Below are positions 9,867 through 59,800 of a stretch of DNA of 64,000 bases, in pieces; the stretch's first letter is position 1; every line of letters begins with the position of its first letter. The DNA is taken from the NCBI GenBank assembly GCA_964035545.1, contig OZ037767.1:17423781-17487780 (forward strand), in the 5' to 3' direction. Source of the DNA: Bugula neritina (taxonomy: Eukaryota > Bryozoa > Gymnolaemata > Cheilostomatida > Bugulidae). The translations under genes and the position numbers were made by a program. The notes beneath the pieces were generated by a model that saw only the letters and a list, made by a program, of their open reading frames with translations, was not told the origin of the DNA and did not search any database.

Positions 9867-9894
9867 GTAGACTTGAGTTACCAGAAGCTAACTT

Positions 9895-17820: not shown

Positions 17821-20800
17821 ATGCTGCGATTGGTTTGCGGGCCCAAAGGCCCCTCCACCCACTCATGCAATATGATGAAGCAGTTCAACAGGGCTATCTA
17901 CATATCCCAAGAACCATTTCATCCGATTCCTGGAAAGAAACCCGAATGGACAACTGCAGATAAGGCCGTCTCTCTGATTCGCTCGAGTAAGTTGCTGTCA
18001 GCTTCAGACGTTTGTCATTTTCTTCTATTTTCATGTACCACCATTAGGAATTCTCTAAAATTTTATATATCAATAAATACATATTCAGTATGTGCTATGT
18101 ATAATTAATAATATTACATATATTTAGTATGTAATGTATTATGTAATATATAATATATTGATGTTTACAGACCATAAAGTGTTTGTCCACGGGACGTCCG
18201 GCACTCCATTTGCTCTGCTCAAAGCTCTGGTTGATCACAGCAAGCAGGCTGGTCTCTCCAACGTTGAGTTGTACCACATCCATGTAGAGGGGCCCGCGGA
18301 GTGGACCCAGCCTGAGTTTGAAGGTGATATATGCAGCACTCTTTAGGGGTTATATGCAGCACTATAAGGTGTTATATGCAGCACTATTTAGGGGTTATAT
18401 GCAGCACTATAAGGTGTTATATATAGCACTATAAGATGTTATATACAGCACTATAAGGTGTTATATACAGTACTATAAGGTGTTATATACAGCACTATAA
18501 GGTGTTATATACAGCACTATAAGGTGTTATATACAGCACTATAAGGTGTTATATACAGTACTATAAGGTGCTATATACAGCACTATAAGGTGTTATATAC
18601 AGTACTATAAGGTGTTATATGCAGCACTATAAGGTGTTATATACAGCACTATAAGGTGTTATATACAGCACTATAAGGTGTTATATACAGTACTATAAGG
18701 TGCTATATACAGCACTATAAGGTGTTATATACAGTACTATAAGGTGTTATCTGCAGCTCTTCCTATGAATTCAGGTATAATCAGAAGCAACAACATGTTT
18801 ATTGGTGCCAACTGCCGACAAGCTGTGAATGAGGGACGCGGAGACTACCTCCCCATCTTTCTCTCTGATATCCCACTGCTATTTAGGAGGAATATTGTCC
18901 AATTAGATGCGGCGTTAGTGCAAGTCACGCCCCCTAACAAGCATGGGTTCTGTTCATTGGGCGGAGCTGTGGATTGTGTTAGATCAGCTTTGCAGAACGC
19001 TAAATATATCATTGGTCAGTAAACTACAGTATAAATATATGATTAGTTAGTATATAATTACAGTATAAATATATGATTAGTTAGTATATTACAGTATAAA
19101 TATATGATTAGTTAGTATATTACAGTATAAATATATGATTAGTCAGTATATTACAGTATAAATATATCATTAGTTAGTATATTACAGTATAAATATATGA
19201 TTAGTTAGTATATTACAGTATAAATATATGATTAGTCAGTATATTACAGTATAAATATATGATTAGTGTACCTGTAACAGGTCTGGTAAACCCGAACGTG
19301 CCGCGCACCTACGGAGACGGCATCATCCACCAGAGTCACTTTGATGCCATGGTGGAGACAAATGACCCGCTGCCGCAGAGACCTCCCAGTAAACCCACAG
19401 ACGTAGAGAAAGCTATCGGAGAGATAATTGCTGCCAATCTGGTGGAGGATGGAGCCACCATTCAGATGGGTGAGTCACGTCTTATGGTTATGTAATATAA
19501 TATGATACAATATAATATATAGTGATATAATATAATATAATAACATATCTAGATACTAGCTAGTACACAGTACACACCTCTGTATATCCCTCAGGTATTG
19601 GAAACATACCAGATCAGGTTCTCTCTAGCCTCTGGGGTCACCGAGACATCGGCGTCCACTCCGAGATGTTCTCAGACGGCCTGGTAGATCTCGTTGAGAG
19701 GGGAGTCATCACTAATTCCCAGAAAAAGGTGATGCAGGGAAAGATAGTCGGGGGGTTCTGTCTCGGCTCTCAGAGACTCTACGACTTTATAGATGATAAT
19801 CCCTCTCTAGGTTAGTCTGTTGCTATTATTTCTCTGTATTCTCTCTATATGTCCTCTATATTTCTTCTGTATTCTCTCTATATGTCCTCTATATTTCTCC
19901 TGTATTCTCTCTATATGTCCTCTATATCCCTTCTATATTACTTCTATGTTCTTTCAATCTTCCTTCCATAGCCCTTCTATCTTCCTTCTATGTTTCTTCA
20001 ATTATGTAACTATAAGTGTGACTAGGCGCGGGATTACATTCAGCCTGATTTTCAAGCTGTTCTATAATTTCTCTAAAATCCTAAATATACTGACTCTGTT
20101 TTCAGCCTTCCTGGACATTGCATACGTGAACAACCCGGCTACTATATGCAGGAACCCGAAGGTCACGGCCATAAACTCCTGTCTAGAAGTTGACATCACT
20201 GGGCAGGTGGTTGCAGACTCTCTCGGACACAAGTTCTTCTCTGGTGAGTCATATGTTGATACTTGTTTAACATCAACTGTCACATGACTCACCACCTGCT
20301 ACTAGTTGTCAACTGTCACATGACTCACCACCTGCTACTAGTTGTCAACTGTCACATTACTCACCACCTGCTACTAGTTGTCAACTGTCACATTACTCAC
20401 CACCTGCTACTAGATGTCAACTGTCACATGACTCACCACCTGCTACTAGTTGTTAACTGCCACATTACTCACCACCTGCTACTAGTTGTCAACTGTCACA
20501 TTACTCACCACCTGCTACTAGATGTCAACTGTCACATTACTCACCACCTGCTACTAGATGTCAACTGTCACATTACTCACCATGTATCACTCATGTAGTA
20601 TTTGATCTCTGTTCTCTAACAATGTCTTTCATACTGCTAGGTGTTGGAGGTCAAATTGATTTCCTGCGTGGAGCGGCTCTCAGTTCTGATGGTCGAGGGA
20701 AACCAATCTTAGCCATGCCCAGCGTTACCAAGAAGGGGGAGTCTAAGATCGTCCCTTTCATCAAAGAAGGTGAAGTATCACTATAAGGCTAGCCGTGTTG

Positions 20801-21076
20801 TCACATTATTAATCTACTTATTACTGAATAAATGAATATAATAGTCCTTAATCTACTGCTGCCGCTGACTCTCATATTTTAACTGCCTCAGGTTCCGGAG
20901 TTGTCACCACGCGAGCTCACCTTCATTATCTGGTCACTGAGTACGGCATCGCTAATCTGTTCGGCAAGAACGTACGACAGCGGGCCTACGAGTTGATAAA
21001 GATTTCTCACCCTGACCACAGAGAGGCGTTGGAGAGAGCGACGTATGACAGACTGAACTGTATGCCTTCACCTTAG
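17821..21076 (+). CDS. 4-hydroxybutyrate/acetyl-CoA-type CoA-transferase
   Basis: Predicted 471-aa class I CoA-transferase (acetyl-CoA hydrolase/transferase family), which moves CoA between acyl-CoA and a carboxylate through a glutamyl-CoA intermediate. Eight exons: 17821-17986, 18171-18323, 18775-19014, 19281-19469, 19595-19810, 20106-20243, 20641-20769, 20892-21076; all seven introns are phase 1. Visible landmarks: HKVFVHGTSGTP near the N-terminus, TPPNKHGFCSLG, GDGIIHQSHF, GIGNIPDQVL, then IGVHSEMFSDG with the expected catalytic Glu near residue 273, GVGGQIDFLRGA near 368-379 and TTRAHLHYLVTEYGIANL near the C-terminus. The first 30 residues are basic with few acidic residues, which fits mitochondrial import. 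Choice of substrate (4-hydroxybutyrate, acetate, succinate or propionate) cannot be settled from sequence alone. Minisatellites fill most of its introns. Confidence 0.92.
18324..18762. repeat. 21-22-bp minisatellite at CoA-transferase exon 2 donor
   Basis: About twenty copies of gtgttatatacagcactata plus ag. The true junction is GAAG|GTGATATATGCAGCACT and the repeated unit reads TAAG|GTGTTATATACAGCACT, so the array is built from the first 20 bases of the intron, including its GT. It fills nearly the whole intron. Confidence 0.9.
19000..19270. repeat. About 29-bp minisatellite at CoA-transferase exon 3 donor
   Basis: Eight or nine units containing taaatatatgattagtcagt. The end of exon 3 plus its donor reads taaatatatcattg|gtcagt, so units include about 14 bases of exon and the donor. 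The array occupies the intron up to the exon 4 acceptor at 19280. Confidence 0.9.
19830..19995. repeat. Pyrimidine-rich TCTATATGTCC/TTCTTC repeat in CoA-transferase intron 5
   Basis: Short imperfect repeats of tctctatatgtcctctatat and ttcttctgtat, starting about 20 bp after the exon 5 donor. Less regular than the neighbouring arrays. Confidence 0.65.
20258..20590. repeat. 36-bp minisatellite in CoA-transferase intron 6, inverted copy of the donor
   Basis: About nine copies of a 36-bp unit containing catgactcaccacctgctac. The core tgactcacc is the reverse complement of the exon 6 donor ggtgagtca at 20242-20250, so each unit could pair with the donor in the pre-mRNA. Confidence 0.85.
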
Positions 21077-21079
21077 ACA

Positions 21080-21320
21080 TGGATTGCAACTTTAGACATC
21101 AGTGTATAACTCGTAACTTTAGACTTCAGTGTATAACTCGTAACTTTAAAGATCAGTGCATGACTCGTAACTCTAGACATCAGTGCATTATGTCTACTAG
21201 ACTACTGTGTATTGGCCAGATGTCTGTTACTTCTGATATATTTCCTGCTGTCGTTATCTATGCTGCCGGTATCTATGCTGCCGTTATCTATGCTGCCGGT
21301 ATCTATGCTGCTCTCTAGTC
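21080..21320. repeat. Short tandem repeats in CoA-transferase 3' flank
   Basis: Imperfect 30-bp repeat of tcagtgtataactcgtaact type (21080-21190), then four copies of a 15-bp unit tatctatgctgccgt (21255-21315). They probably lie in the 3' UTR or just beyond. Confidence 0.7.
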
Positions 21321-21539
21321 AACTACTAATTGCGAGTTTCCTGCTGACCTATATTAGCATAGAAATGTTTAAATACTTATGTTATGTTATATATTTTTAT
21401 TATGATATTCTATTATGTTTTTGTATTTATTGCATTGCAATCACCGGTTATACTGTTTTAGTCAAATCTTTTTACTGCAAATTGTTTTGCAAACTAATTG
21501 CCTCTTCAATATAACGATACTGTGCAACATAACCAGAAT

Positions 21540-22195: not shown

Positions 22196-22245
22196 TGAAT
22201 ATATAATATATCGGCAGCACTCAGTTGCAGTCTACAGCAGCAGCA
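22196..22245 (+). promoter_or_regulatory. Candidate promoter and 5'-UTR exon of the GPCR gene
   Basis: A TATA-like run atatataatatat at about 22199-22211, then tcagttg resembling an initiator (about 22221), then cagcagcagcag|gtgagg, a strong splice donor after position 22245. This arrangement fits a short non-coding first exon spliced to the GPCR exon at about 23400. It is position-based inference. Confidence 0.35.
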
Positions 22246-35816: not shown

Positions 35817-38800
35817 TCAGTGGGAGCCTTTCCGGTTGATAGTCTCTCCGCTGGCCTTTCGTAGAGTAGTTATAGTCGGTATGCTATCTCTCTTCTTACC
35901 GTCTACAACACAGTCTAAACTCTAATACTTTCTACAACAACACAGTCTAATACAACGTGGTATCATATATGTAGACCTATTGTAGAATGGACACACAGAC
36001 AGATCACCAGCTCAGTAACAAATAACAAATACAGTAAATGTGGGTCATCAGATTATAAATACTGAGTTAATAGAAAAAGATAAAACATATAAAATAATAA
36101 TCTAATGCCAACTGGCCTCGCTGGGTTTATGACCGGTTCCTTTGAAGTGAACAGAGCTGATGGGTGTAGCTGGGACATTAGCCCAGATAATGTACACACA
36201 GTAATGTATTTACCATATTAATTTACTTTTAATTATATATGAGAAACATGACTGGGAAAGCACATTAAACAAATGTAATATTTATTATTACTGTAAACAC
36301 AATATAATGGTCTCTATAATTTGCTTGTAAAGCTCATTGCCAGACTATTAATGGTGCATGGAAAAATCATTAGGACCATATTTATAGCGTCTCTAAGCAA
36401 CTAATTTCAATTTTATTATCAAAGCCCTTTGAAATGGCAGTTTACATGCACTGGTCTGAAGGAAACAGGATGGACAGCTGTGAAGGAGGCTGTCATTGGC
36501 TATCGCCTGGAAACAAAGTTAAGATGGAGGAAGTTCACCAGGAAATATTAGTCTGCATCGTGGGTGGTCTGGGGTGAGTCACCAATCCAAATATTTAGAC
36601 ATAAAAATACTAAACTACTACTCAATAAAATTAACTTTTAATGTTTTTCAAATGATTTTTAGAGATTAAATTTCCAGTTCCAGCAACAGCAATAGAAATA
36701 TAAGTTCACTAGAGAAAGGCCATAACCCCAGCAGCACACACCTCAGAATAAAAAAGTTTTATTTGAAAAATATATATTATTAGAGAGGAACAGGAAATGA
36801 AAGGTGAAGGTCGTACCATTAGAAAGTTCTACCCGCCTTCTAGTGGTGGAGCTGCCAGCAGAGCTGAGGGGGGAGCCCCCTGTCGTACCTCTAGAAATAA
36901 GAGTATTGCAAAGATAGAAGGAAATCACGGAGAAATAGAAAGCAAATTATTAGAGCAGCTGTAGAAACAGAAACTGGCTAATCGCAGCCAAGGTTAGATA
37001 AATTACGAAATCGTACCTGGGCGTGGTTCTACCTTTGCTAAATATAGTATATTATATATAGTATATTATATATAGGTATAGTATATTATATAATATAATA
37101 AATATAGTATATTATATATAATAAATTAGTATACTATACATATTATATCCCAACATAACGGAAAGGGTAGAGCACATCGTCACACAAGTAAAACACACAT
37201 TTAATAACCAAAATAATATTGAATATAATTGGTCACAATGCTCAACATAGTTTGTGTAAACTGGTTAGATTTTATTCTAATATAAAGAGAGAAATTCGTA
37301 CCCAGTACTTCTGGTAGAGCCGGCGCTGTTTATACTCGCACTGCTTCCTGTGGAGTTAGGACTGCCTACATTACGACTAGATGAGGCGTGTTTCACACCT
37401 CTTCCCGGCATAAAACTGCGTGCTGCAAACAGAACCAGGTGATTGTGATACAGTACTGAGAGGTGATATTAAAGTACTGAGATGTGATATTAAAGTACTG
37501 AGAGGTGATATTAAAGTACTGAGATGTGATATTAAAGTACTGAGAGGTGATATTAAAGTACTGAGATGTGATATTAAAGTACTGAGAGGTGATATTAAAG
37601 TACTGAGATGTGATATTAAAGTACTGAGATGTGATATTAAAGTACTGAGATGTGATATTAAAGTACTGAGAGGTGATATTAAAGTACTGAGATGTGATAT
37701 TAAAGTACTGAGAGGTGATATTAAAGTACTGAGATGTGATATTAAAGTACTGAGATGTGATATTAAAGTACTGAGAGGTGATATTAAAGTACTGAGATGT
37801 GATATTAAAGTACTGAGAGGTGATATTAAAGTACTGAGAGGTGATATTAAAGTACTGAGAGGTGATATTAAAGTACTGAGAGGTGATATTAAAGTACTGA
37901 GATGTGATATTAAAGTACTGAGAGGTGATATTAAAGTACTGAGAGGTGATATTAAAGTACTGAGAGGTGATATTAAAGTACTGAGATGTGATATTAAAGT
38001 ACTGAGAGGTGATATTAAAGTACTGAGATGTGATATTAAAGTACTGATAGGTGATATTAAAGTACTGAGATGTGATATTAAAGTACTGAGATGTGATATT
38101 AAAGTACTGAGAGGTGATATTAAAGTACTGAGATGTGATATTAAAGTACTGAGATGTGATATTAAAGTACTGAGATGTGATATTAAAGTACTGAGAGGTG
38201 ATATTAAAGTACTGAGAGGTGATATTAAAGTACTGAGAGGTGATATTAAAGTACTGAGATGTGATATTAAAGTACTGAGAGGTGATATTAAAGTACTGAG
38301 ATGTGATATTAAAGTACTGAGATGTGATATTAAAGTACTGAGATGTGATATTAAAGTACTGAGATGTGATATTAAAGTACTGAGAGGTGATATTAAAGTA
38401 CTGAGAGGTGATATTAAAGTACTGAGAGGTGATATTAAAGTACTGAGAGGTGATATTAAAGTACTGAGATGTGATATTAAAGTATGAGATGTAAACTCAT
38501 TGAGCTGCTGAAATACCGACCTGTGCCAGCAGAAGACGGCCCCGCGACGCCGTTCACTGCGGGAGGAGTGGATGACTTGAGGGTGTGCTGCGAGTGGCGG
38601 CGGGGTTCCTTGCCACCAGGGGGCAGCGGGATCTTAGATGCTGTTGAATAGGAAACTGGAGATTAGTGTATGACTAACACAAGAGATTACAGGTGCTACG
38701 ATACAAAGCAAACATTGAAAAATATGTTTATTTGATAAGATGATAATCTGGTGGTCACATGGCAGGTGTGCGTTACGCTTGTGTGGTGACACAGTGCTAT

Positions 38801-41800: not shown

Positions 41801-44800
41801 CCATCACTGCCAGGGAATGTGAGTCACGCCAACAGTTCTGGTGTCGGAGTGAAGTCCAGCAGCGAATGCCGCTCAGTTCTCACCTCAGACGGATATTCGG
41901 TACAGGGTCGGAGGACAACTCCAAGATGGCTTCATAAAAGTGCTGCCGGAAGAAGGAGCTGGAGAAGGTGGCAAGAACCTGCTGACAGATGTCAATAAAC
42001 AGCGTCCTGTCTCTGTAGCTCCGGGCTTCAGCAAAATCTACAGTCACATGACTCAATACAGTCACATGACTCAATACAGTCACATGACTCAATGCAGTCA
42101 CATGACTCAATACAGTCACATGACTCAATGCAGTCACATAACACTAATATGACACAGCTAATTAAATATAATTTCTACTAAATTATTTACTGCTAGTTTA
42201 GTTTTCAGCAAGACTTCAGATAACATTTGTTGAATCCTTAAAATTTGATGTTCGAATGAAAATCTCAGCAAGGTCACATGACTAACCTACTACTAGGTCA
42301 CATGACTAACCTACTACTAGGTCACATGACTAACCTACTACTAGGTCACATGACTAACCTACTACAAGGTCACATGACTAACCTGTTATCAACTGCTGAC
42401 AGATTTCTGTTCTCTGTTCAAGTTTCCGATTACATCTGAGATACCTGAGGAGTGCTCTGGTGGCTGCCAGTCGGACAGGAAGTGCTTTCTATAGAGACAA
42501 ACATGAATAGCTGTGAGACAAACATGAATAGCTGTGAGACAAACATGAATAGCTGTGAGACAAACATGAATATCTGTGAGTGATACTATTACTAGAGGTA
42601 CACTATAAGTTATCTCAAAGAGTTTCACACTCTATCAATACACGTTTGATTGTTCCAGCAAGAAAGTGGAACATAGAGTAGAGTTTGAGATTAATTCAGA
42701 GTTACTCTCTCCTTGATGTGAACAGAATCTAAATACAGTATTCAACTTACAGTGAGTGTGTGTGACACACTTACAGAGTACGTGACACACTTACAGAGTA
42801 CGTGACACACTTACAGAGTACGTGACGCACTTACAGAGTACGTGACACACTTACAGAGTACGTGACACACTTACAGAGTACGTGACACACTTACAGAGTG
42901 TGTGTAACACACTTACAGAGTATGTGACGCACTTACAGAGTACGTGACGCACTTACAGAGTACGTGACCCACTTACAGAGTACGTGACATACTTACAGAG
43001 TACGTGACACACTTACAGAGTACGTGACACACTTACAGAGTACGTGACATACTTACAGAGTATGTGACACACTTACAGAGTACGTGACACTTACAGAGTA
43101 CGTGACATACTTACAGAGTACGTGACATACTTACAGCATTATGCAACTTGTCGAGAGTCCTGGGCACCAGTTTGCTGTAGATCTGGTCACTGGACAGAAC
43201 GAGGGTGACGACGGACATGTTGTCTAGAAACTTCTCCTGCAGCCGCCAGTCGTTGGAAGAGAAGATCACCTGCTCACAGGAGAGCAGCGCCGACAGCAGA
43301 TCGGCAGCGTGTGTCTGTTTGTCCGGATTGATGAGTTTGCTGAAAGTGGTGAGGGTGTGGGACATGTTGGAGACGAGGCCGTTGAGAACCTGACAGTATT
43401 CGTCCTTGAAAAGTATAACCAGGTCCTTGAGGAGGAGGGAGAGGTGGGAGCCGATGGTGCGCGACACCTGCAGAGTCAGTATATACTAGTTACTCTACTG
43501 ACTGTATACTAGTTACTCTACTGACTGTATACTAGTTACTCTACTGACTATATACTAGTTACTCTACTGACTATATACTAGTTACTCTACTGACTATATA
43601 CTAGTTACTCTACTGACTATATACTAGTTACTCTACTGACTATATACTAGTTACTCTACTGACTATATACTAGTTACTCTACTGACTATATACTAGTTAC
43701 TCTACTGACTGTATACTAGTTACTCTACTGACTATATACTAGTTACTCTACTGACTGTATACTAGTTACTCTACTGACTATATACTAGTTACTCTACTGA
43801 CTGTATACTAGTTACTCTACTGACTATATACTAGTTACTCTACTGACTGTATACTAGTTACTCTACTGACTATATACTAGTTACTCTACTGACTATATAC
43901 TAGTTACTATACTGACTATAATATACTAGTTACTCTACTGACTGTATACTAGTTACTCTACTGACTATATACTAGTTACTCTACTGACTATATACTAGTT
44001 ACTCTACTGACTATATACTAGTTACTCTACTGACTATATACTAGTTACTCTACTGACTATATACTAGTTACTCTACTGACTATATACTAGTTACTCTACT
44101 GACTATATACTAGTTACTCTACTGACTATATACTAGTTACTCTACTGACTATATACTAGTTACTCTACTGACTGTATACTAGTTACTCTACTGACTATAT
44201 ACTAGTTACTCTACTGACTGTATACTAGTTACTCTACTGACTATATACTAGTTACTCTACTGACTGTATACTAGTTACTCTACTGACTATATACTAGTTA
44301 CTCTACTGACTGTATACTAGTTACTCTACTGACTATATACTAGTTACTCTACTGACTATATACTAGTTACTATACTGACTATAATATACTAGTTACTCTA
44401 CTGACTGTATACTAGTTACTCTACTGACTATATACTAGTTACTCTACTGACTATATACTAGTTACTCTACTGACTATATACTAGTTACTCTACTGACTAT
44501 ATACTAGTTACTCTACTGACTATATACTAGTTACTCTACTGACTGTATACTAGTTACTCTACTGACTATATACTAGTTACTCTACTGACTGTATACTAGT
44601 TACTCTACTGACTATATACTAGTTACTCTACTGACTGTATACTAGTTACTATACTGACTATAATATACTAGTTACTCTACTGACTGTATACTAGTTACTC
44701 TACTGACTATATACTAGTTACTCTACTGACTATATACTAGTTACTCTACTGTATTATATACTAGTTACTCTACTGACTATATACTAGTTACTCTACTGAC

Positions 44801-47800
44801 TATATACTAGTTACTCTACTGACTGTATACTAGTTACTCTACTGACTATATACTAGTTACTCTACTGACTATATACTAGTTACTCTACTGACTATATACT
44901 AGTTACTATACTGACTATATACTAGTTACTCTACTGACTGTATACTAGTTACTCTACTGACTGTATACTAGTTACTCTACTGACTGTATACTAGTTACTC
45001 TACTGACTATATACTAGTTACTCTACTGACTGTATACTAGTTACTCTACTGACTATAATATACTAGTTACTCTACTGACTGTATACTAGTTACTCTACTG
45101 ACTATATACTAGTTACTCTACTGACTATATACTAGTTACTCTACTGTATTATATACTAGTTACTCTACTGACTATATACTAGTTACTCTACTGACTATAT
45201 ACTAGTTACTCTACTGACTGTATACTAGTTACTCTACTGACTGTATACTAGTTACTCTACTGACTGTATACTAGTTACTCTACTGACTGTATACTAGCTA
45301 CTCTACTGACTATATACTAGTTACTCTACTGACTATATACTAGTTACTCTACTGACTATATACTAGCTACTCTACTGACTGTATACTAGTTACTCTACTG
45401 ACTATATACTAGTTACTCTACTGACTATATACTAGTTACTATACTGACTATATACTAGCTACTCTACTGACTGTATACTAGTTACTCTACTGACTATATA
45501 CTAGTTACTCTACTGACTATATACTAGTTACTATACTGACTATATACTAGCTACTCTACTGACTGTATACTAGTTACTCTACTGACTATATACTAGTTAC
45601 TCTACTGACTATATACTAGTTACTCTACTGACTATATACTAGTTACTCTACTGACTGTATACTAGTTACTCTACTGACTGTATACTAGTTACTCTACTGA
45701 CTATATACTAGTTACTATACTGACTATATACTAGTTACTCTACTGACTGTATACTAGTTACTCTACTGACTGTATACTAGTTACTCTACTGACTGTATAC
45801 TAGTTACTCTACTGACTGTATACTAGTTACTCTACTGACTGTATACTAGTTACTCTACTGACTATATACTAGTTACTCTACTGACTGTATACTAGTTACT
45901 CTACTGACTATATACTAGTTACTCTACTGACTATATACTAGTTACTCTACTGACTGTATACTAGTTACTCTACTGACTATATACTAGTTACTCTACTGAC
46001 TATATACTAGTTACTATACTGACTATATACTAGTTACTCTACTGACTGTATACTAGTTACTCTACTGACTGTATACTAGTTACTCTACTGACTGTATACT
46101 AGTTACTCTACTGACTATATACTAGTTACTCTACTGACTATATACTAGTTACTCTACTGACTATATACTAGTTACTCTACTGACTATATACTAGTTACTC
46201 TACTGACTATATACTAGTTACTCTACTGACTCATCACCTCATGGAAGCCGTGGGCCATCGTCTTCCTAACCGGGACACTCGGGTCTCGACACAATCGAGA
46301 GAAACTGCTGGAAAGCTCCGTGTCAAACTTTCCGGGACTTCCAGAGAACAACGTCATTGCCTGGTAACAAGAATAGTATTGCTGAGTTACAGAGATTCAA
46401 AACATGTCATACACCGATATGCGGATATCTGGCAGAGGAAAAGTTCAATAATTTGTTATGGAGTCAAGAAAAGAAAGTCATAAAGGAAGGAGAACTGTTT
46501 CAACACTTGCAATATAATAATAACATATTTTTATTACGTATGTTGTAATAAATTGCGCAGAAACATGCATTATGGAGTTGTCTTCCTTAACTTTCCAAAC
46601 AGAAAAGAGGACAATTCCTAGTTTGAACATTGAGTTAGTAGAGCAAATAACTTTACAGTTTCTAAGCCCTAAGGAATATAAAATACCAGACTAGAACACA
46701 CAGAGTGGAGGCTGTTACATCCACTATTTATCAGTTTAGACTGAAAAGGTCAAGGTGACATAGTTTAGAGTGAGAAGGTCAAGGTGACATAGTTTAGAGT
46801 GGAAAGGTCAAGGTGAAACCCTGCTTACCGGGAAGTTGTAGGCTGCGTTGACTCTACACTCCACAGGCCGGTCATCATCTTGAGCAGCCAATCCTAAAGT
46901 CTGTAACAGAGAGAGCTCAAGTAGAGGGAACACAGGCTTAGCGCATAGCCTGAGTACTGTTACACAGGGACAGACAACTCTGAATACAGCACCATGAAAC
47001 ACTAGCATATAATGTACTGCGTACGCAACTAATACATTGCCCTTAGAACACTGGTCAGGTCTACCGTATAAGGAACAGAAGGAGTGCAAGACACGAGGGG
47101 GTACCTTAGGGGAGGTCCTGTTGTCATTGATGTCGCTCTTAGAGTCAGCATTGCCGACATCAGCCCTGCCCATGCAGCACAGCTTCTTGTAGTAGTCGAG
47201 GAACCACGTCTTCTGAGCGGCGGTCATATTGGGGGAGAGACCGTGGCAGAGCTTGCCGAGGTGCCGCGAGACGACGGGGAGGGTGGAGTCAGCTTCTTGA
47301 AGCGCTGACTGACAGAACTTGACTACCAGGGGGATGATAGTGCTGCCGCAAGTCTCTATAACAGTGAGTACAGAGTAGTTAGAGTGAGTACAGAGTAGTT
47401 AGAGTGAATACAGAGTAGTTAGAGTGAGTACAGAGTGGTTAGAGTGAGTACAGAGTGGTTAGAGTGAGTAGAGAGTAGTTACAGTGAATACAGAGTGGTA
47501 GAAGTTCTGAATGGAACTACAGGAATGTTGGCAGCTAACCAAAGCCAGTCACCAAAATAGAACTGACATCACGTCTTCCTATTCATCAGTGGAAATCATT
47601 CATCATTCTAACCACAGCTGATTCAGTGCCAGAGATAAACACAACCAAATAAACAATAGCATGACTTTCACAACTACTTATAATATAATACAGAGTAGTA
47701 ATATAATACAGAGTAGTAATATAGTACAGAGCAGTAATATAGTACAGAGTAGTAATATAATACAGAGTAGTAATATAGTACAGAGTAGTAATATAATACA

Positions 47801-50800
47801 GAGTAGTAATATAATACAGAGTAGTAATATAATACAGAGTAATATAATACAGAGTAGTAATATAATACAGAGTAGTAATATAATACAGAGTAGTAATATA
47901 ATACTGAGTAGTAATATAATACAGAGTAGTAATATAATACAGAGTAGTAATATAATACAGAGTAGTAATATAATACAGAGTAGTAATATAATACAGAGTA
48001 GTAATATAATACAGAGTAGTAATATAATACTGAGTAGTAATATAATACAGAGTAGTAATATAATACAGAGTAGTAATATAGTACAGAGTAGTAATATAAT
48101 ACAGAGTAGTAATATAATACAGAGGAGTAATATAATACAGAGTAGTAATATAATACAGAGTAGTAATATAATACAGAGTAGTAATATAATACAGAGTAGT
48201 AATATAATACAGAGAGAGTAATATAATACAGAGTAGTAATATAATACAGCTCACCGTCGTCGAGCAGAGAGAGGATGTTGACGACGGTGTCAAGGCCAGC
48301 TAGTCTGACGGAACACTCCTCATCGTGAGCGAGCTCCACTAGTTCGGGAAGTATTGCACTTTTGGTGGACTCCAGACTGTAGAGACACATATGTACAATA
48401 TAATGAATATATAATATATATAGCATACATATATTATATATATATACTATATAGTAGATATATATAATATACTCTATATCACGCCATATATTACAGAGTA
48501 TATGAGGGTCGGGAGAAAGACAAAACATCACAAATAAACTTTAACTTCTATTGAATCCTCTTCTTTCAATTCAAACATTTAATTACAAGGAAGTTGCAGA
48601 CACTTTAGTAATTATCCCCCTGACCACAGCACGAGTCTCAGTCTACAGTATAACTGGAGTGATTGAGGGCGGGCAGACCCCCCCCCCCCCCCGACTAGAC
48701 AAACAGTGAACTCACCCGAGACCCTTGGCTATGAGGTCAAGTTGCCGGCACATGCAGGCTCGCACTTCGTACTCCACGTCCTGGCAGAGTGACTGAACTA
48801 TCGGCAGGATTTCCTTCTTTATTCTACCAACAGAGAGAAGACAACAGCTCACAGAGCGGCGCTACATACAGGTGGCGGTTGTGAGAGGGCAACTTCGCAT
48901 TAGAAGGGAATATAAAAACTCACACAAAACTCTCCAGGCAGATGGAGATCTTGCCGAGGATACGGCAGCTCATGAGACGTGACTGGATGTTCTGAGACAG
49001 CTGCCCTTTCTGTATGGCCTTCGTCATTACCTGGTAACACCAACAAGTGTCATATATATTATACATCTTCAATGGGGAGACAATCCCAAGTACTGTGTGA
49101 TAACTATACGTTACAGAACGTATGACTGGCAATACAAGTGCTTCAGCTTGACTTCTACACCAGAGTACACATTTCATTCTCTGTAAACTAAGTTGTGAGC
49201 AGTACTTCAAGTAATACTTGCCTCTCTCCTGAGTACGTCTTTAGTTAGCAGAGGAATGACTTGAAGAAGGGTGTCTAGCCACGCCTCTCCCACGTCTGCG
49301 TCTTTGTAGTCGAGAGCGTTTAATATGATTGGAAGAAACTGTTGAGCAAAGGTGGCACCCGACACCACTTCGGATTGAAATATTTGTAGGAACACGGAGC
49401 TGGCGGCCATTTGCATATCTGCTTGAGCGATCGGCAGGAACTCCTACAAGGCATTGTGGGAGTTTTACTGTTAGGAGGTGTATAACACAGCTAGGTGGTG
49501 CATATCCCAGCTAGGTGGTGTATAACCCAGCTAGGTGGTGTATAACCCAGCTAGCTAAACAAAGTAAAAGTAAAATTTCACCCAAAGCTATAGCAAGGGT
49601 TGTAAATTAAGTTTTCAAGTATAGAGTAGTAGTTGAGAGGTTAGAGGAAGTGTGGAGTATAACAATTTGCATAATATTTCTGCCAAATTCAAGAGATAAA
49701 AACTGTTTCAACAGAATATTAATGATTTCCAGAATGAAGGATGACCTCATCACATGGTATGATGGGCTGTTGCCTGCTGTACTGGAGGCAGCGGCAGCAG
49801 AGTATGGTGGGCCACAATCTGTACATATACTCTAAATTGGCTGTAAAGGCAGCTTATATTGATTAACAACAGGGCTGGAAATACACACTTTTTATTACTT
49901 GTTATAACAAGTTGTGATGGAGTATTTAGCAAGATAACCACTTGAGTTATGCTAATAGCTTGCACTGAGAATTACATAAGGATGTAATATTAGTTGATAT
50001 GATATCTGCATTAGATCAATACACAGAGTCAGTTCATATCAAATAATCAATACAAAAACTTACTGAATATTGAACACTAAATAGATACATGCAATTCACT
50101 CAAACACTCATTTATTATTCATTTTTAATTTAGACAAATGGAATGTTGATCAAACTTATATCTGCATCAGTTTGAACTAATTTGGTAGCAAATATTTATG
50201 CTGGTTGCACTTACAGTGTTGCCAGCATAAAGTAAATATTACATCAGTCACCATGTGTACAGAACTGTAAGTACTATTATATCGCAAGTCTCAAAGATAG
50301 CCAGAGTTCTTATCTGGCTACAGTGAAGGGAGACAACCCTAACATCACACAGCTTACAGGTATAATGGTAGGGTCTAGCCTCACTTACTCTGATTTTAGG
50401 GATGACTTTGCGGAGGCACTCATCTTTGTTGTCTTTGAGGAGGTGGGGGAGGCTGGTGACTACACTCAGTCTCTGTATGTCCTGACCACAGCTACCAGCA
50501 GAATAGTTGAATACATGACAGTGTGGAGAGAGTACTACATGTTACTATACCATACTATGACAGTGTGGAGAGAGTACTACATGTTACTATATGAGGGGCT
50601 CACCCGTTATGTAATGGAATGTAACACACCTGCAGCTATAACTACTCTAGAAATGAGATGTAACAGAATATTCTCGGAGCACTTAGTCTGAGCAGTGAAC
50701 AGAGTCACTGAGACTAGTCCAAGTGCTACCAGCTTCTACCAGGAGAAGTCATGTGGGCGGGGCTTACAGAACATGTAAGTGTATAGCACAAATTCAAAAG

Positions 50801-53800
50801 AAACTGGGGGTTAGTTTCAGAAACATTCCTCACTAGCTGTGAGTTGGCTTTACAGAGTCACTTATATGATAAGATACTGAAAGTTATCAAGTGTTGACAT
50901 AAGTGTTGACAATTGAGTAAGTGTTGATAATTGAGCAAGTGTTGATAATTGAGCAGACACCCAGGTGGATTGACAGAACTTTCTAGAAAGCCGGTTCAGT
51001 GAGAAAACATTGCATCCTCCACACAGCAAAGAACTGTTGCACTGTTTAATTATTACCACTCCTAGTAGAAATAGTTCTCCTCTAACAACTAGCAGATGAG
51101 TGACGTATACAGAGTAGTTGCTGTATGCTAACTGTACACAGGTGTGTATGTATTGTATTAGGAGAAATATTCTGCTGTAGGCAAAGTTGCAGAGACTTGT
51201 AAAGATCACTGAAAATTGATAGATAGAGGTTGACAATACCTACATATCCATAAGTGTAATATTATGTTACGAGGACATATTATATTGGGACAGCTAGGGT
51301 GGGACGAACAGACAGACAGAGGTGGTGATATAGGTTAATGAGATGATGAGAGTTGCATTGCATATTGTAGATGATAGTGTATACATGGTTAGTTAGTTAC
51401 ATCATAGGTTAGTATACACTGTTCAACTGACTGGTTAGTGATACCAGTGACTGCTTGACCCCTCTCCCCCCTAATACAGAGAGCAGTAACCCTCCCCCCC
51501 TCACTATTACAGAGAGCAGTAACCCCTGCTGGTCCCTAGATATCACCTCAACCTCTAAATATAATACCATCCTCTAGACTCTAGAGTCTAGATATAATAT
51601 CAACACTTCACTTTGATATACTTGTAGCAGAGCGTACTGTTTGCCATAGCCTGATATCCTATGACCTAGACACATGCAGGGAGTTATCTTAACATAGAAC
51701 ACAGGCTAAACCTCACACGAGTACAGATTAGAGAGAGTGACAGTCCCTCAATTAAAGCAAGTTGGACTGAAACTTCAAGATATACGAATAGAAAAATCAA
51801 ACAATGAGTTGAAAGCAAGCAGCGTTTTTGCAGCGAAAATTAATTGTTAATCAAATGTTATCAATATAACAGAGATGCACTTTCAACAGCCATTGGAATA
51901 GCTAGTCACAGTAACAAAGACCTTACAATAAAACAAGGTTGTTACAAAGATGGAATTGAATTATGGGCTGGAACCCAGAGCAAAGCACAATCCTAGTATT
52001 CTGCAGCTAGCAAAAGATTGTCAGGTGCTTGGTACAGGTCGACAGCTATAGCAAGAGATGTCCAGAGTAGGTTCTACCTCTCCTACTAACTTAGCTAATA
52101 TTTCTGGGTTGTTGTTTGAAAATACTGACAGCAAACAACAGGATGAGTCATTGAGTGCAGTGAACACTTTTGATTGAATTACCAATACAAGGAATATTAG
52201 ATAGTGACAAATGACATAAATAAAATATGATAATTAAATGAAATCCCTCCACTAACCGCTCTAGTATAAAACTATAACATATGGCCTAATGTTGGGAGTT
52301 GTGGATATTCAATATGAATATCAGCAAAGTAGAACAAGTGATGTCGTAGTTGTAGTAACTGAATACAACTCAAGTGCGTACACCAATGCTTACCGCTGCC
52401 TGAAGTGAAAGGGAATGTAGTTGTCACCAAGGTCACGATACACAGGGGCGTGATGGTGATGCCCCAATAATATATCCGGTGGGTAGTTGTTTTCCAGAAC
52501 TATATGGTGAGCCAGGTTTGATGAGCTTAAATCCAACTCAGATTGAGTTTCTGGCGAGAAAGAGTCGACAAAGCCAACCATGTCTGGGATGTTACCATCC
52601 CCATCTGACTCTTTATTCCACTGCAGCAGATCCACTGACAGTTTTTCAGTTGCTTGTGAGTCAGAGTGACTCTCACAGCTTGCATCATTTTGATTATCAC
52701 TCTTTTCAGTGTGCTCACTTTGAGTTTCACTATGACTATGAAGAGAGTCTTTAAGTCCGACTCTAGCCAGATGAGGTGTCATTACTCCGGATTCTATCAG
52801 CAAATCCATTGACTTCCAAACAGTTGTTAGAGATCTGTTTAACCCATTCAAACTCCAGCAGTATCACTGATGAGCACAATCGCGGAACCGAAGACGTTAC
52901 GACGGGAACTTGAGTGCAGGCTGTGCAGTACTGCAGTAATCCGATCCTCTAGTTACACATGAATGCACCTATTATTTCACTGACAATACGCACTGAAAGT
53001 TGCAATACAAATGACAAGCAACACTCGATGTAACTAAACTTGGCGATAGCCAATACAAAAGCCTCTATCAGTCCAACAGTGAATCATAGCAAATCAAAAG
53101 AACATCAAAGGCAGCTAAAACGATTTCGATACTAGAGGATGGCTTCGCTGCGGATAGCAGACGAACGATGAGTAATCAAGGTGTCGTACAGTGTTTGTAT
53201 TGATAACACGTGTTATGATTCAACTCGTCCAAAGACCAACTCTCTCTATGCCAGATTATTAAATACAGCAGTTATAAAATTAGCTGTTAGTGAATTCGGC
53301 TATTATTGGCAAGCTCTCGCCGGAATATGTGACTGATTTATATTACACAGGCATGTAATTGTTGTATACTAGGTAGGAAGCTGCGAACTAATCTACTGAT
53401 TGTGTAAATCATTGTTTATGGCAGCATCTACTTTGATGATAGCTGTTTGAAGGCTGCAAAATTAATTAGGCTCAAAAAGCTCATTAGAGGCTGTAAAACA
53501 ATGCTAGCACTACCAGTTGATGGGAAGGAAGACTTTTTGTAAGGTCTTGAAAGACAAATAATTTAGAAACATGCAGATTGCTCTTTCAGAATGCAAAGCT
53601 GATCAAATACCATAAAGATGGTCTCAATCAGATATAATGGTTGGGTTGGATCTAATAAAGGAAGTCAGTTCTTAGAAGGGCCAACAGTTTTCAATTGAAT
53701 CAAATGGAATAAGTCAGCATAGTTGGTAAGACAGCAGAGTCAGTGAGAGACAACTCTTATAATTTCTTATATAATTATTTAACAATAACATACCAACATA

Positions 53801-56800
53801 ATATGATTACTGTGTTGTATAGTATTACTTAGTTATTATGTACCTATATAACAGATGTAAATTCAGGGGAAAACAACTTCCAAATTATTCGTTAACCTTA
53901 GATTGAAAGTGGATATTACCAGATTATGTCCAACAGCTTTACTGTGTCTATACCATAGAGTGTAGATATACTATACAGTGTAGATATACAATACAGTGTA
54001 GATATACTATACAGTGTAGATATAGTATACAGTGTAGATATACTATACAGTGTAGATATACTATACAGTGTAGATATACTATACAGTGTAGATATACTAT
54101 ACAGTGTAGATATACTATACAGTGTAGATATACTATACAGTGTAGATATAGTATACAGTGTAGATATACCATACAGTGTAAATATACTATACAGTGTAGA
54201 TATACTATACAGTGTAGATATAGTATACAGTGTAGATATACTATACAGTGTAGATATACTATACAGTGTACATATAATATACAGTGTAGATATACTATAC
54301 AGTGTAGATATATAATAGTATAAAGCAAATATTTTGGAGTTGTCTTTCGCACAAAACTTCAGATATTTTTAAGAGTTGCCCGTTCTCATCAAATATAAGT
54401 GAATACAATGATTTAACTGTTAGTATATAGTATAACTGAGAGTTAACTGTTAGTATATAGTATAACTGAGAGAGAGTTAACTGTTAGTATATAGTATAAC
54501 CGAGAGAGAGTTAACTGTTAGTATATAGTATAACTGAGAGAGAGTTAACTGTTAGTATATAGTATCACTGAGAGTTGACTGATATTTATACAGTTTCTCA
54601 ATTACCAAAGTACAGAGTTAAAGTTGTTCACATAGCCCTAGCGCTAGTAGATATTTGTTGCATGAGAAGTTGTCTTCTTACAAAATAAAGCAACTAAGCT
54701 CCAAACCATAATGTCAAGAACTAAAGCTAAGCTAATAACAGCTTCATATCTAATGTTAATCGTATACCAAGTTTTTCTTAACAATCACTATGTTTGGGGA
54801 AAAGAAAACTGAATTTCTATTTGCAAACATATTATAGAATTCTGGTGACCTTGACTTTTAGCCGCAGCTCCTAGCCTACACTTAGCCTGGGCTCACGTAA
54901 ACTCAGCAACTTGAATCAGGAACTGATACCAACACCACACAAGTTGATAGAAAGAATTCTACTACATTATACTAATAATTAGAATATATTATACTAGTAA
55001 TGAGGTAACTCTATATACTATAACCACCCACGTGCAGGTAACATTGTGTGCAGTACTAGAATACGTTTACCTATTTGTATATGCATTTACACAGTATTGG
55101 AACCTCATTATCATTCCGCATATCAATTATAGCAACTAGTAAACACCAGTATGAAGTTATTACAGGTATAATGCAGTATAAATGTCAGAGTGATGAAAAC
55201 ACACCACAGCATATAGAATATATAAACCCAATGGTACCCTGGGCAGTAAAACAGCCCTTATGTAACTCGGCCTACCTTAGAACTGCTGCGATCTGGTCCC
55301 AATCAATCTGTCTAGGCGTTGGAGCACGAACATTTGACCAATCAATTTCGTCGTTAAATATGATTTCCCGACATCTCTCGGGCATTGGAGACGGAGACCG
55401 AAATCTCCCATTCTTGTCTCTTCCTCTACTGGAAGATCTTGATGCCCTTTGTCGGCCTCTTTCTCTGTTAGCTTTCCGTCTAGATGGGGACGGTGAACGT
55501 ACCTCCCTTAAATATGTCTGTAAATAGCCGCTGGGAGATTTCTCAGCTGGAGGTTGGTCACTGTTCTCTAGTCTGACGGCTGGTTGAGTCTCAGCACGTC
55601 TCGTATTACGTTGTGATTTACGGCGTGTGTCTTTTGAAGAGTTACGTTTCCCTGCCAGTTTGGTTGAGTGAAGCACATTAGGGTGTGTTTCGCTGGTCTT
55701 AAGGTGAGTGGTACCTTCATCATAGTCACCTGTGGCAGGAAAAGGAGAGTTGGCAGCTGAACTAGCACTGCTGGGAGAGTTGGCAGCTGAACTAGCACTG
55801 CTGGGAGAGTTAGCAGCTGAACTAGCACTGCTGAGAGAGTTTGTAGATATCTTAAACACTGGCACATCATCCGCTTCTTTGTCTATCCTTTGTATGTTAA
55901 CAGAAGTTACGGGCTCTTGTCTGTTAGCAGCTTTACGGGAAGGCAGCGTATTGAAAGTGTTTTTTGGACTAGAAGATGGAACCAGGGCTTTAGTCTGCCC
56001 AGCAGCTGGCACCTGCTTCACATCAATGGCAGCAGGAGCGTTTATCTTCACACCTCGCTGTCGCAGTGATGACACGTCTAGACCAGTTGGCCAGACAGGT
56101 TGGGGGGAGCTATGGTACCGACCCACCCACTCTGATTCACTAGGCGCACCTGAGGCTAGTCTAGACTTGGAAGGCAGCGTCAGGGACCAGCTGTCTGTAA
56201 CCGGTCTCGCTGACTCAGGCTGACCTCCACTTCTCACCTTTGACCTGCGAGGAGGCAGAGCCGGGGGCTCTGGGAGACTCACCGCCGATCTCACTGGGAC
56301 AGCCTCGTTGCCGATTATCTTGTAGACAGGAATGTCAACGTTCTCAGCTGCCTCAACTCTCGGGAAAGTGTTCTGGTGCTGACTTACACTCACAGGAAGT
56401 AACTCCGAATCTTGAGGAGGTGTCCACGGCACTTTTTGGTGAGGGAGAGTATTGCTGAGCCACGGTGTGGACAGCATATTGATCCTAGGTAGGCCGCCCT
56501 CCGACATGGCTACCATGAACGGCTGACCACCAAACGGCTGGCTACCAGAAGCTCCAGCGTAGGACTGAGTCCAGTGAGGAGCCACATTAGGAGGATATAA
56601 CCTCTGCTGCCGAGACAGCTGCTGAGACTGTGGTGCTCTTACCCTCTGGTCCTTCATTTGCTGGTGTAGGATGGCTGGACTGATACCCGTATCCTCTACT
56701 GTCAGGATGAACTGATCATCTCCCACTGGCTGCACCTTCATTCTCCGCCCTGTGTTTGTGTTGTATCCATTTCCATGTGATGTCATCTTCTTATCTCTCT

Positions 56801-59800
56801 TGTGAGTCAGCGCAGATCTGCTGCTGTTGCTGCCACTACTGTTAGATATTCGTGTATTACTGCTGCCACTACTGTTAGATATTCGTGTATTACTGACTGC
56901 ACCTGTATTGCCTCTATTACACGCCTTACTGCTCTCAGTGATGTAATAATTGTTAACATTATTGCATTTCAAATCATTTCCCGTAGTCAAGGCGTTATCA
57001 TTCACGTGCTCCAGAATGTTGCATTGCAACTGGTTACCTTGCCAATTTGACTTGGCGTCTGCATGATTGCTATTGTTGTTGAAGTTGTATACAGTCACCG
57101 GAGTAATGACTGCTCTGCCCAGTGGTGTAGCGCTCCCCCTATTCAGCTGTGTAATCCTTCCCTCATGACCCCCCTTTCTTCTTACAGGAAACGCAGCACT
57201 CCTGTCTCTACTTCTAGCAGACTGGTTGAAACTTCTACCTGCTGGTGATGAATTCATTTGCTAAGACTAGCAAATAGTTTGAATGGTTACCTCACTGTTG
57301 AAAGGCAGACGATCAAATGCTTACGTTACTCCAACTGTGCAAAGCCCAAACAGTTTGGGTATAACAAGATGAATTAGCTAGAGTATGCTCCCTGAAGCTC
57401 CAGAGGGCTGTACACTTACAGCAGAAACTAAATAGCAACTTGTACAGGGGGTGAAACCATTTGAGTAATCCACTCCTTGTCAAAACACGCTGTGACTACA
57501 TTATACTGTGAGTCAAGACCGTCTGCACTTCTATACGTCTGCACGGCTCCTGTACGACACGGAGCTCAACTGATGGTTACTTCTGATTGTTACGAAGCAT
57601 TAGCTAATAGCAATGAACTGTATACTAGAAACACTAGAATACTGTTACAATAAACATCCCATCACTGTCTATTATATTATAATGTATGCTGTAATTTACT
57701 CTGTGCTCTGTAGATATGCTATGGTGATGAGGGTTTATGGAGAAGTACCTAAACCCTCATTTACAGGGCAGTGAACCCTTTTATATCCATGTGTGTATCC
57801 TATTGCAGGAGATGAGACTGTAGTATTTACTGCAATATATTACAATATATACTGTATTATATATACTGTAATATACTGTATTATGCTGTATTAAACTGTA
57901 TTATACTGTAATATACTGCATGTAATATAGTATAATATACTGTAATATAGTATATTATACTGTAATATATTATACTGTAAAATACTGTAATATAGTGCCA
58001 TATACTGTATTAAACTGTATTATACTATATCATACTGTGATATACTTAATGCATGTGATATACTATATAATATACTGCACTACACAGCAATATACTGTAG
58101 TATAATGTAATATACTGTAGTATATAATGTAATATGCTGTAATATACTGTGACACACTGTAGGACACTGTACAGACTACACAATACATAACAACTCTAAA
58201 CCAAGTTTCCACCCACCAGCTAACACTGCTGTGTTAGCAGGTAAACAAAGAAACACGAGCAACAAGTATTTCCTGTCATGCAGGACTTGGGCTGTGACAG
58301 TGGTGATTCACCCATCTATTATAACTTTAATATGTCCATCACATGTACAGTGCATACAAGTAGAGAACACCCACAATGCCCTGGTGATGCAACACTGGGG
58401 ACAGACAACTTCCAGCCTACACCCACATACTAGCTAGTAGCTGTGATGAAAGTACTGCTATTCTATCAACCATAACAATAACAGACAACAGCTTGTACAA
58501 AATCTAGATTCTAGACAACAGGGAAAAGTATATTAGTATGTGTGTCATGTAATATATTATAAGTATATTATTCTATGTCCCTTTTATTTGTAATGGCTTC
58601 AAAATTGGGATTTAGGGGCCTAAAATATGAAATAATGAAATATAAGCCCAAATAATACTTTATATAATATACAGTGAAAATATAACAATAGACAGAAGTT
58701 TTAGTAACATAATCTCTACTATTCATAACTGTAGAGATGGGACGCTAAATAAAGAGAGGGCAACTTTGATTGACAAGCATAGTTACTGGTAGGCCAATAC
58801 TTATATTGTTTAGCACAGAAGAAGTGAGTAGAACAGACAACTCCCAAACTATCTAAATCACTAATTTATTAAACATGTGACATTCTTTATACTAGAGCAC
58901 AAGGAGGTGGGTGTGTTTTGTCACGGAGATATTTTGTGTTTTATAAGCTAAGGCTGTAGACAAAATTCGATAAAGCTTCCAATTTGGTGCTATGTTTTAT
59001 GGCTATATCAAACTGAAGGCACATTAATACCATTTAAAGAACATTCCAGAAGGTAACACTGAGTGTGCATTGTTGATGCAGGGAGAGCTGGCGGCATAAT
59101 TAGAGAAACTGCTTCAGTTAGCAAGATTAACTTACTTTAATATGTAGATACACACCTCAAGATTAACTTACTTTAATATGTAAATACATCTCTCAAGAGT
59201 AACTTACTTTAATATGTAGATACATCTCTCAAGATTAACTTACTTTAACATGTAAATACATCTCTCAAGATTAACTTACTTTAATATGTAAATACATCTC
59301 TCAAGATTAACTTACTTTAACATGTAAATACATATCTCAAGATTAACTTACTTTAATATGTAAATACACCTCTCAAGATTAACTTACTTTAATATGTAGA
59401 TACACACCTCAAGATTAACTTACTTTAATATGTAAATACACCTCTCAAGAGTAACTTATTTTAATATGTAGATACGCCTCAAGAGTAACTTACTTTAATA
59501 TGTAAATACATCTCTCAAGAGTAACTTACTTTAATATGTAAATACATCTCTCAAGATTAACTTACTTTAACATGTAAATACATATCTCAAGATTAACTTA
59601 CTTTAATATGTAAATACATCTCTCAAGATTAACTTACTTTAATATGTAGATACATCTCTCAAGAGTGACTTACTTTAATATGTAGATACATCTCTCAAGA
59701 GTAACTTACTTTAATATGTAAATACATCTCTCAAGAGTAACTTACTTTAATATGTAGATACACCTCTCGAGGTCTCCCAACTTCTCATCTACTGTCAGCT

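What the first reader, a model, noticed from the sequence alone, without database searches (positions are those of the whole stretch)
18324..59790. Minisatellites seeded at splice junctions: arrays are tandem copies of the neighbouring exon-intron boundary
Across at least two unrelated genes (CoA-transferase on plus, PPP4R4 on minus), arrays begin at a donor and the unit contains that donor, often with exon bases. Best cases: PPP4R4 exons 2, 11, 12 and 15, and CoA-transferase exons 2 and 3. Each array has a different sequence, so this is not one dispersed element but a repeated process acting on splice junctions. It is known that tandem duplication of AGGT-containing segments can create introns. 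Here the same process seems to have run on to produce long trains of pseudo-splice sites. I know of no description of such a genome-wide pattern.
Basis: seen in the sequence. Interest (0 to 1): 0.9.

Follow-up and report, generated by a model that had tools for sequence, protein, structure and literature searches.

The report
Minisatellites grown from exon-intron borders
In this genome, which matches the moss animal Bugula neritina, many short repeat arrays sit at the ends of introns and a few were copied from the exon-intron border itself, a pattern known from single genes of lancelets but here seen at many places.

Summary
The observation largely holds. In four genes identified by homology, 23 of 35 introns hold tandem arrays. 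17 of 35 arrays lie within 12 bp of a splice site, against 6.6 expected when intron length is allowed for (P 3e-7). Three arrays (PPP4R4 intron 1, CoA-transferase intron 3, mitochondrial-carrier intron 3) clearly copy exon bases: 21/23, 12/14, 16/16.

Trains of pseudo-donors as strong as the real one occur in two arrays. Genome-wide, triple donor words exceed reversed controls: 317 vs 0, 69 vs 1, and concentrate near chromosome ends. The window lies in a mid-chromosome hot domain: 2 of 35 predicted CCT introns hold arrays, and a random-sample test is not significant.

"No description" is wrong: such arrays are lancelet "mirages" (PMC3087553). Best reading: recurrent short tandem duplication at exon borders, expanded in end-like domains, mostly neutral because the exon-proximal site is spliced. 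Splicing is inferred from protein homology; no RNA was available.

The parts
17821..21077 (+). CoA-transferase / acetyl-CoA hydrolase gene, 8 exons
   Evidence: intact spliced frame; Pfam PF13336, PF02550; no gap at the seven junctions against a solved 4-hydroxybutyrate CoA-transferase
18321..18757 (+). CoA intron 2 array, 22 bp x 19.8, starts 3 bp inside the exon, ends 17 bp before the acceptor; collapsed intron 36 bp
19001..19267 (+). CoA intron 3 array, 31 bp x 8.5; first 14 bases are exon 3 (12 of 14 match the unit); collapsed intron 31 bp
36817..59819 (-). PPP4R4 gene, 19 exons modelled (first coding exon not found), 18 introns; the last four introns lie in a poorly conserved tail
   Evidence: best relative Watersipora subatra PPP4R4-like; alignment A1
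59122..59768 (-). PPP4R4 intron 1 donor array, 36 bp x 18; 23 exon bases inside, 21 match the unit; 18 pseudo-donors at least as strong as the real donor
42762..43136 (-). PPP4R4 intron 10 donor array, 20 bp x 18.8, 2 exon bases; 18 pseudo-donors at least as strong as the real one
42494..42580 (-). PPP4R4 intron 10 acceptor-end array, 21 bp x 4.1, 5 bp from the acceptor
42271..42384 (-). PPP4R4 intron 11 donor array, 24 bp x 4.8, 2 exon bases
42039..42139 (-). PPP4R4 intron 11 acceptor-end array, 18 bp x 5.6, 1 bp from the acceptor; shares AGTCATGTGAC with the donor array
47681..48249 (-). PPP4R4 intron 6 donor-end array, 18 bp x 31.7, 5 bp after the donor
47363..47496 (-). PPP4R4 intron 6 acceptor-end array, 20 bp x 6.7, 7 bp from the acceptor; shares ACTACTCTGTA with the donor array
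43480..46231 (-). PPP4R4 intron 9 array, 23 bp x 119, fills the intron (6 bp from donor, 12 bp from acceptor; collapsed length 41 bp); 224 sites within 2 bits of its weak donor
46733..46816 (-). PPP4R4 intron 8 array, 29 bp x 2.9, 12 bp after the donor
39698..39883 (-). PPP4R4 intron 14 array, 17 bp x 10.9, 12 bp after the donor; no donor within 2 bits of the real one
37452..38489 (-). PPP4R4 intron 16 array, 21 bp x 49.5, 31 and 29 bp from the two splice sites
40784..41476 (-). PPP4R4 intron 12, two adjacent mid-intron arrays (counter-examples)
9871..12028 (+). mitochondrial carrier gene, 4 exons
11284..11479 (+). carrier intron 3 array spanning the acceptor at 11463/11464, 38 bp x 5.2, 16 exon bases, all matching the unit
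   Evidence: no gap at the junction in the printed alignment
14520..14712 (-). radial spoke gene intron 3 array, about 43 bp x 4.5, 12 bp from the acceptor; this acceptor rests on the gene finder and reading frame, not on homology
   Evidence: the gene is named by Pfam on its exons 5-7

Best explanation
Short stretches (about 15-45 bp) at exon-intron borders, donor or acceptor, are tandemly duplicated again and again, and the copies expand into minisatellites on the intron side. When the first duplication covers the junction, the unit carries exon bases and a copy of the splice site; more often it starts a few bases inside the intron. The arrays are mostly neutral: the exon-proximal copy of the site is the one spliced (inferred from protein homology), so the rest stays intronic. 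The process is strongest near chromosome ends and in a mid-C3 domain holding this window, which fits a recombination- or break-linked duplication mechanism (inferred). Shown: array positions, exon-derived units, genome-wide donor-word trains and their end bias. Inferred: which copy is spliced, neutrality, and the duplication mechanism. In structure these are the lancelet 'mirages', in another phylum and in larger numbers.
For: 17 of 35 intron arrays lie within 12 bp of a splice site vs 6.64 expected under an intron-length-aware null; 11 of 18 vs 1.93 in introns of at least 150 bp collapsed length, PPP_i1 left out. Exon bases inside the unit: 21/23, 12/14, 16/16; these exon stretches align to other proteins, so the exon is the source. 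Own junction window (better of two) outscored all 68 other windows for 17 of 28 arrays (the own window often holds array DNA, so this partly restates adjacency). Donor-word triples genome-wide: 2457 vs 66, 317 vs 0, 69 vs 1, with the single 7-mer no commoner than its reverse in 240 kb (30 vs 42). End bias, cut-offs chosen after seeing the places: 9 of 10 listed C1+C2 arrays within 2.1 Mb of an end, expected 1.2; 10 of 19 within 2 Mb, expected 3.4. Tandem repeats with units divisible by three lie in open frames of the window, so such duplications also arise in exons.
Against: In 262 kb of other sequence the link to predicted splice sites was not significant: 3 of 50 arrays, 1.96 expected at 12 bp; 4 against 2.6 at 30 bp. 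Within 326 kb held, trains of GTAAGT (3, mean of permutations 2.2) and GTGAGT (3, mean 1.7) were not exceptional and GGTAAGT had none (mean 0.47). Two other 7-mers of the same letters give 849 and 995 matches genome-wide, so the 37-fold ratio overstates the case; match counts are swayed by a few large arrays. Two arrays in PPP_i12 are mid-intron. Only 2 of 35 predicted CCT introns hold arrays. Control-word arrays are also somewhat end-biased (5 of 15, P 0.03). No RNA, no second haplotype and no relative's genome could be read.
Confidence: 0.6

Rival explanations
1. Ordinary minisatellites in short introns. Arrays start anywhere; because many introns are only about 100-400 bp without the arrays, an array is bound to lie near a splice site. 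The window is just an unusually repeat-rich stretch.
For: Several array-bearing introns collapse to 31-150 bp once extra copies are removed; the random-sample test is not significant; density is local.
Against: The null already allows for intron length, and the excess is strongest in introns of at least 150 bp (11 of 18 vs 1.93). It does not predict exon bases inside units or trains of donor words.
Confidence: 0.22
2. Intron birth. Some of these introns were made by the arrays: a duplicated segment carrying AG|GT supplied both donor and acceptor and the copies between became the intron.
For: CoA introns 2 and 3 and PPP4R4 intron 9 collapse to 36, 31 and 41 bp, below the shortest intron in my models (81 bp in predicted CCT genes; 100 bp in the window), so they are practically all array. 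In PPP4R4 introns 6 and 11 the donor-end and acceptor-end arrays share an 11-base word in the same orientation, reached by 1 of 359 different-intron pairs. Published models propose this route (Rogers model and lancelet mirages as told in PMC3087553; Zhuo 2007 seen only as a cited title).
Against: The array may equally have replaced older intron sequence. The two ends of PPP_i10 share only 4 bases and those of PPP_i1 at most 8. Intron positions in relatives could not be checked (one search was uninformative).
Confidence: 0.1
3. The arrays are kept by selection because extra splice-site copies help splicing.
For: PPP_i1 and PPP_i10 hold 18 pseudo-donors each at least as strong as the real donor.
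Against: Of 25 arrays examined, 20 hold no site at least as strong as the real one; CCT genes mostly manage without arrays.
Confidence: 0.04
4. Assembly or sequencing artefact.
For: Long arrays are hard to assemble; copy numbers may be off.
Against: Long-read assembly with reported quality value 53.7; copies differ by point changes; many independent arrays.
Confidence: 0.02

Closest known systems
Lancelet 'mirages' (Adh3, globins BflGb6 and BflGb9; also told for troponin C and PGBD5)
   Same: Minisatellite-like tandem copies spanning an exon-intron boundary, at 5' or 3' boundaries, in unrelated genes, reported not to disturb splicing (PMC3087553 passages; PMC3902484 passage)
   Different: Another phylum; 23 of 35 introns in four neighbouring genes; most arrays abut rather than span the junction; donor-word arrays on all nine chromosomes (19) with an end bias. 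Length instability shown in lancelets was not tested here.
Human introns from tandem arrays (Zhuo et al. 2007) and repeats altering human gene structure (PMC2812944)
   Same: Minisatellites at exon-intron boundaries said to be able to form new introns through cryptic splice sites (PMC2812944 passages)
   Different: There the claim is new introns; here intron gain is untested. Zhuo 2007 seen only as a citation.
Subtelomeric minisatellites of vertebrates (recalled, not looked up)
   Same: Tandem arrays of short units concentrated toward chromosome ends
   Different: Here many lie at splice junctions and some carry donor words.

Membership tests
Mirage (lancelet boundary minisatellite) | Tandem units span an exon-intron boundary and contain exon bases | tested here: met
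   Clearly met by 3 of 35 arrays: exon bases matching 21/23, 12/14, 16/16; 3 more hold only 2-3 exon bases; the others do not span
Mirage (lancelet boundary minisatellite) | Both 5' and 3' boundaries can be affected | tested here: met
   9 donor-end and 9 acceptor-end arrays within 12 bp, one array counted in both; acceptor-spanning array 11284-11479
Mirage (lancelet boundary minisatellite) | Regular splicing is kept | tested here: inconclusive
   Protein homology shows no gap at the spanned junctions; no RNA data
Mirage (lancelet boundary minisatellite) | Length differs between haplotypes or cells | not testable with these tools
   Only one haplotype held; the alternate haplotype exists (GCA_964035465.1)
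Intron gain by tandem duplication | The intron is absent at that position in relatives | not testable with these tools
   No eukaryote relative's genome held; isoform comparison of relatives uninformative
Intron gain by tandem duplication | Donor and acceptor ends come from copies of one segment | tested here: inconclusive
   11-base shared words in PPP_i6 and PPP_i11, not in PPP_i10 or PPP_i1
Subtelomeric minisatellite | Enriched near chromosome ends | tested here: met
   9 of 10 (P 5e-8) and 10 of 19 (P 7e-4 at 2 Mb; 3 of 19, P 0.24 at 1 Mb); control-word arrays 5 of 15. The window itself is mid-chromosome.
Dispersed mobile element or introner | Copies at different sites share sequence | tested here: not met
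   1 of 359 different-intron unit pairs share 11 bases

The most novel reading that the evidence does not exclude
Bugula neritina has an ongoing, chromosome-end-biased process that turns exon-intron borders, donors and acceptors alike, into minisatellites over the whole genome, and some of these arrays have become whole introns, so that intron birth by tandem duplication can be watched in a living lineage.
Probability: 0.15. Interest if true: 0.82.

Novelty: new member of a known kind. Interest (0 to 1): 0.52.

Why it matters
Intron gain by tandem duplication is an old idea with few natural examples. A genome with many border-derived arrays of graded size (two copies to more than a hundred), an available alternate haplotype and sequenced cheilostome relatives would let birth, spread and effect on splicing be measured directly. 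It also suggests that lancelet mirages are not a lancelet peculiarity, and adds a regional clue (chromosome ends and a mid-C3 domain) to their cause.

Tried and rejected
A dispersed repeat as the source of the arrays: rejected, units are unrelated. 'Trains of pseudo-splice sites' as the general form: rejected. Uniform genome-wide density: rejected. Match counts of one 7-mer triple as proof: weakened by two other 7-mers of the same letters, so longer donor words were used. A junction test on the random sample: low power, not significant; three arrays there look donor- or acceptor-anchored by eye (L018 3396, L037 2600, L015 1824), of which only L037 2600 counted in the automatic test. Intron ages from protein isoforms: uninformative. 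Telomere repeats in the window as a fusion mark: no tandem pair of TTAGGG. Trains of GGTGAGT and of an acceptor word: not completed.

Rows dropped before counts: TRF periods under 10 and overlapping rows; seven arrays deep inside PPP_i1; ten of 35 arrays further than 31 bp from both sites; units under 14 bp or score under 100; periods under 14, scores under 60 and arrays of 3 kb or more; C3 rows in the end test, because the list is cut inside C3; the 28.75-29.08 Mb rows of C2 counted as one array. In one search a pyrimidine-rich array (L037 1900-2061) lay in a falsely predicted exon and was not counted; with it the CCT figure would be 3.
Full report
What the window is. The window is C3:17423781-17487780 of a 215.8-Mb assembly. 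Contig lengths of C1, C2, C4, C5, C6 and C7 equal those in Table 3 of the Bugula neritina genome note (PMC11480708, passages seen), and the PPP4R4 protein is closest to the bryozoan Watersipora subatra (68% identity; the other 119 listed of 700 hits 53% or less). I therefore take it as B. neritina tzBugNeri2.1. It lies mid-chromosome on C3 (32.42 Mb in that table).

Genes. CoA-transferase: 8 exons, intact frame, Pfam acetyl-CoA hydrolase/transferase domains, no gap at its seven junctions against a solved 4-hydroxybutyrate CoA-transferase. PPP4R4: 19 exons modelled, first coding exon not found; aligned with four relatives, junction 1 without a gap against Owenia, Mytilus and Branchiostoma, the Watersipora model differing there; junction 7 (no array) and the last four junctions lie in variable stretches. 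Two more genes were added: a mitochondrial carrier (9871-12028, + strand) and a radial spoke protein (minus), whose introns 1-4 rest on the gene finder and reading frames only. In all 35 introns.

Position of arrays. 23 of 35 introns hold at least one array, 35 arrays in all, 9 of them in the 9.25-kb PPP4R4 intron 1, of which three lie in a long open frame. 17 of 35 lie within 12 bp of a splice site. Placing each unit at random in its intron after removal of extra copies gives 6.64 (P 2.9e-7). In introns of at least 150 bp collapsed length without PPP_i1 it is 11 of 18 against 1.93 (P 1.7e-7). Donor and acceptor ends are hit equally: 9 each, one array touching both. Three introns (PPP_i6, i10, i11) carry one array at each end. 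Two PPP_i12 arrays are mid-intron.

What the units contain. Exon bases inside the array that match the unit: PPP_i1 21 of 23, CoA_i3 12 of 14, carrier intron 3 (acceptor) 16 of 16; CoA_i2 3 of 3, PPP_i10 2 of 2, PPP_i11 2 of 2. Since these exon stretches align to other proteins, the exon is the source. For 17 of 28 arrays tested the own junction window scored above all 68 other windows, but the own window often contains array DNA. Among 25 arrays within 31 bp of a site, pseudo-donors at least as strong as the real one: 18 in PPP_i1, 18 in PPP_i10; pseudo-acceptors at least as strong: 3 in carrier intron 3, 2 in CoA_i2, 2 in PPP_i2; none in the other 20. Weaker trains within 2 bits of a weak real site also occur, as in PPP_i9 (224 donors), CoA_i2 (13 acceptors), CoA_i3 (7 acceptors) and PPP_i11 (4 donors, 5 acceptors). 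So strong trains are a minority form.

Genome-wide. Three copies of GGTAAGT spaced by 8-36 bp: 2457 matches against 66 for the reversed word. Two other arrangements of the same letters gave 849 and 995, so this ratio alone proves little; by distinct arrays GGTAAGT had 14 in the first 8.55 Mb of C1 (where the list ends), GATGGTA one there and 5 on all of C1. Longer donor words: AGGTAAGTATA 317 vs 0, CAGGTAAGTA 69 vs 1. Shuffled forms of these longer words were not tested. In 326 kb held, GTAAGT and GTGAGT trains were not exceptional among permutations.

Regional bias. Cut-offs were chosen after seeing the places. Of the 14 GGTAAGT arrays listed, 12 lie in the first 2.6 Mb of C1 (P 3e-5). Listed arrays on C1 and C2: 9 of 10 within 2.1 Mb of an end, 1.2 expected, P 5e-8; C3 rows left out because the list is cut there. 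All 19 arrays: 10 within 2 Mb, 3.4 expected, P 7e-4; at 1 Mb 3 vs 1.7, P 0.24. Arrays of the control word: 5 of 15 within 2.1 Mb (P 0.03; Fisher against the donor word 0.012), so part of the bias is shared by minisatellites in general. The window has neighbours at 17.25 Mb and 17.74 Mb, so mid-C3 looks like a hot domain. C1-C3 are about twice C5-C7 in length, so an old fusion of end regions is a possible cause; untested, and no tandem telomere repeat is in the window.

Results against. Random loci (240 kb) plus five CCT genes (22 kb): 3 of 50 arrays near predicted splice sites, 1.96 expected, P 0.32, with few exons (93) and a home-made gene finder that gave 24 of 27 known window exons exactly, exons it was trained on. 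CCT genes: arrays in 2 of 35 predicted introns (3 if a mispredicted exon is read as intron) against 23 of 35 in the window (Fisher 1.6e-7 for 2).

Mechanism. Best supported: recurrent short tandem duplication at exon borders, then expansion by slippage or unequal exchange, tolerated because the exon-proximal site is used. Exon borders may be favoured because breaks or accessible DNA flank exon nucleosomes (inference, no data here), and only the intron side can grow freely. Intron birth is a live minority reading: three introns are practically all array (collapsed 31-41 bp; shortest intron in my models 81 bp), and the two ends of PPP_i6 and PPP_i11 share 11-base words, though those of PPP_i10 and PPP_i1 do not.

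Prior work. Tandem repeats spanning exon-intron boundaries are the "mirages" of lancelets (Adh3, globins; both boundaries; length instability; normal splicing; proposed for intron gain): PMC3087553 passages, PMC3902484 passage. The Adh3 paper itself was not held. Searches for mirages gave only lancelet papers on the subject; searches for minisatellites, tandem arrays or duplications at splice junctions gave no genome-wide description in the listings; the library lacks most subscription papers. The bryozoan papers were seen in passages only.

Verdict. Real, above chance in the window, partly misread, already known in kind, and apparently widespread and end-biased in this genome.

Noticed in passing
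small contigs of G000 (e.g. C139, C186, C195, C90, C213, C52): Chaperonin and kinesin matches with many in-frame TAA and TAG but few or no TGA, as in ciliates that read these as glutamine (recalled): the unplaced contigs seem to hold a ciliate associate.
   Followed up: no
window 4615-9863: 5.2-kb array of a 38-bp unit (141 copies) ending 7 bp before the acceptor of the first carrier exon at 9871.
   Followed up: partly
window 32232-32284, minus strand: A 23-bp unit in 2.3 identical copies starting about 3 bases inside a likely donor of a secreted-type gene: a very young duplication at a junction; the gene model was not checked by homology.
   Followed up: partly
window 26560-27014, 55744-55841, 56828-56900: Tandem repeats inside open frames with unit lengths divisible by three (18, 30, 33 bp), as expected if frame-keeping duplications survive in exons.
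   Followed up: no
window 57258-55275 and 52806-52394, minus: Two long open frames inside PPP4R4 intron 1 on the same strand, of unknown identity.
   Followed up: no
C3 about 17.25-17.74 Mb: Local cluster of donor-word arrays round the window in the middle of C3; C1-C3 are about twice the length of C5-C7, so an old end-to-end fusion is possible.
   Followed up: partly
L008 1-7867; L011 1-6095: Very long arrays in random samples: a 20-bp unit over 7.9 kb and an 18-bp unit, probably coding, over 6 kb.
   Followed up: no
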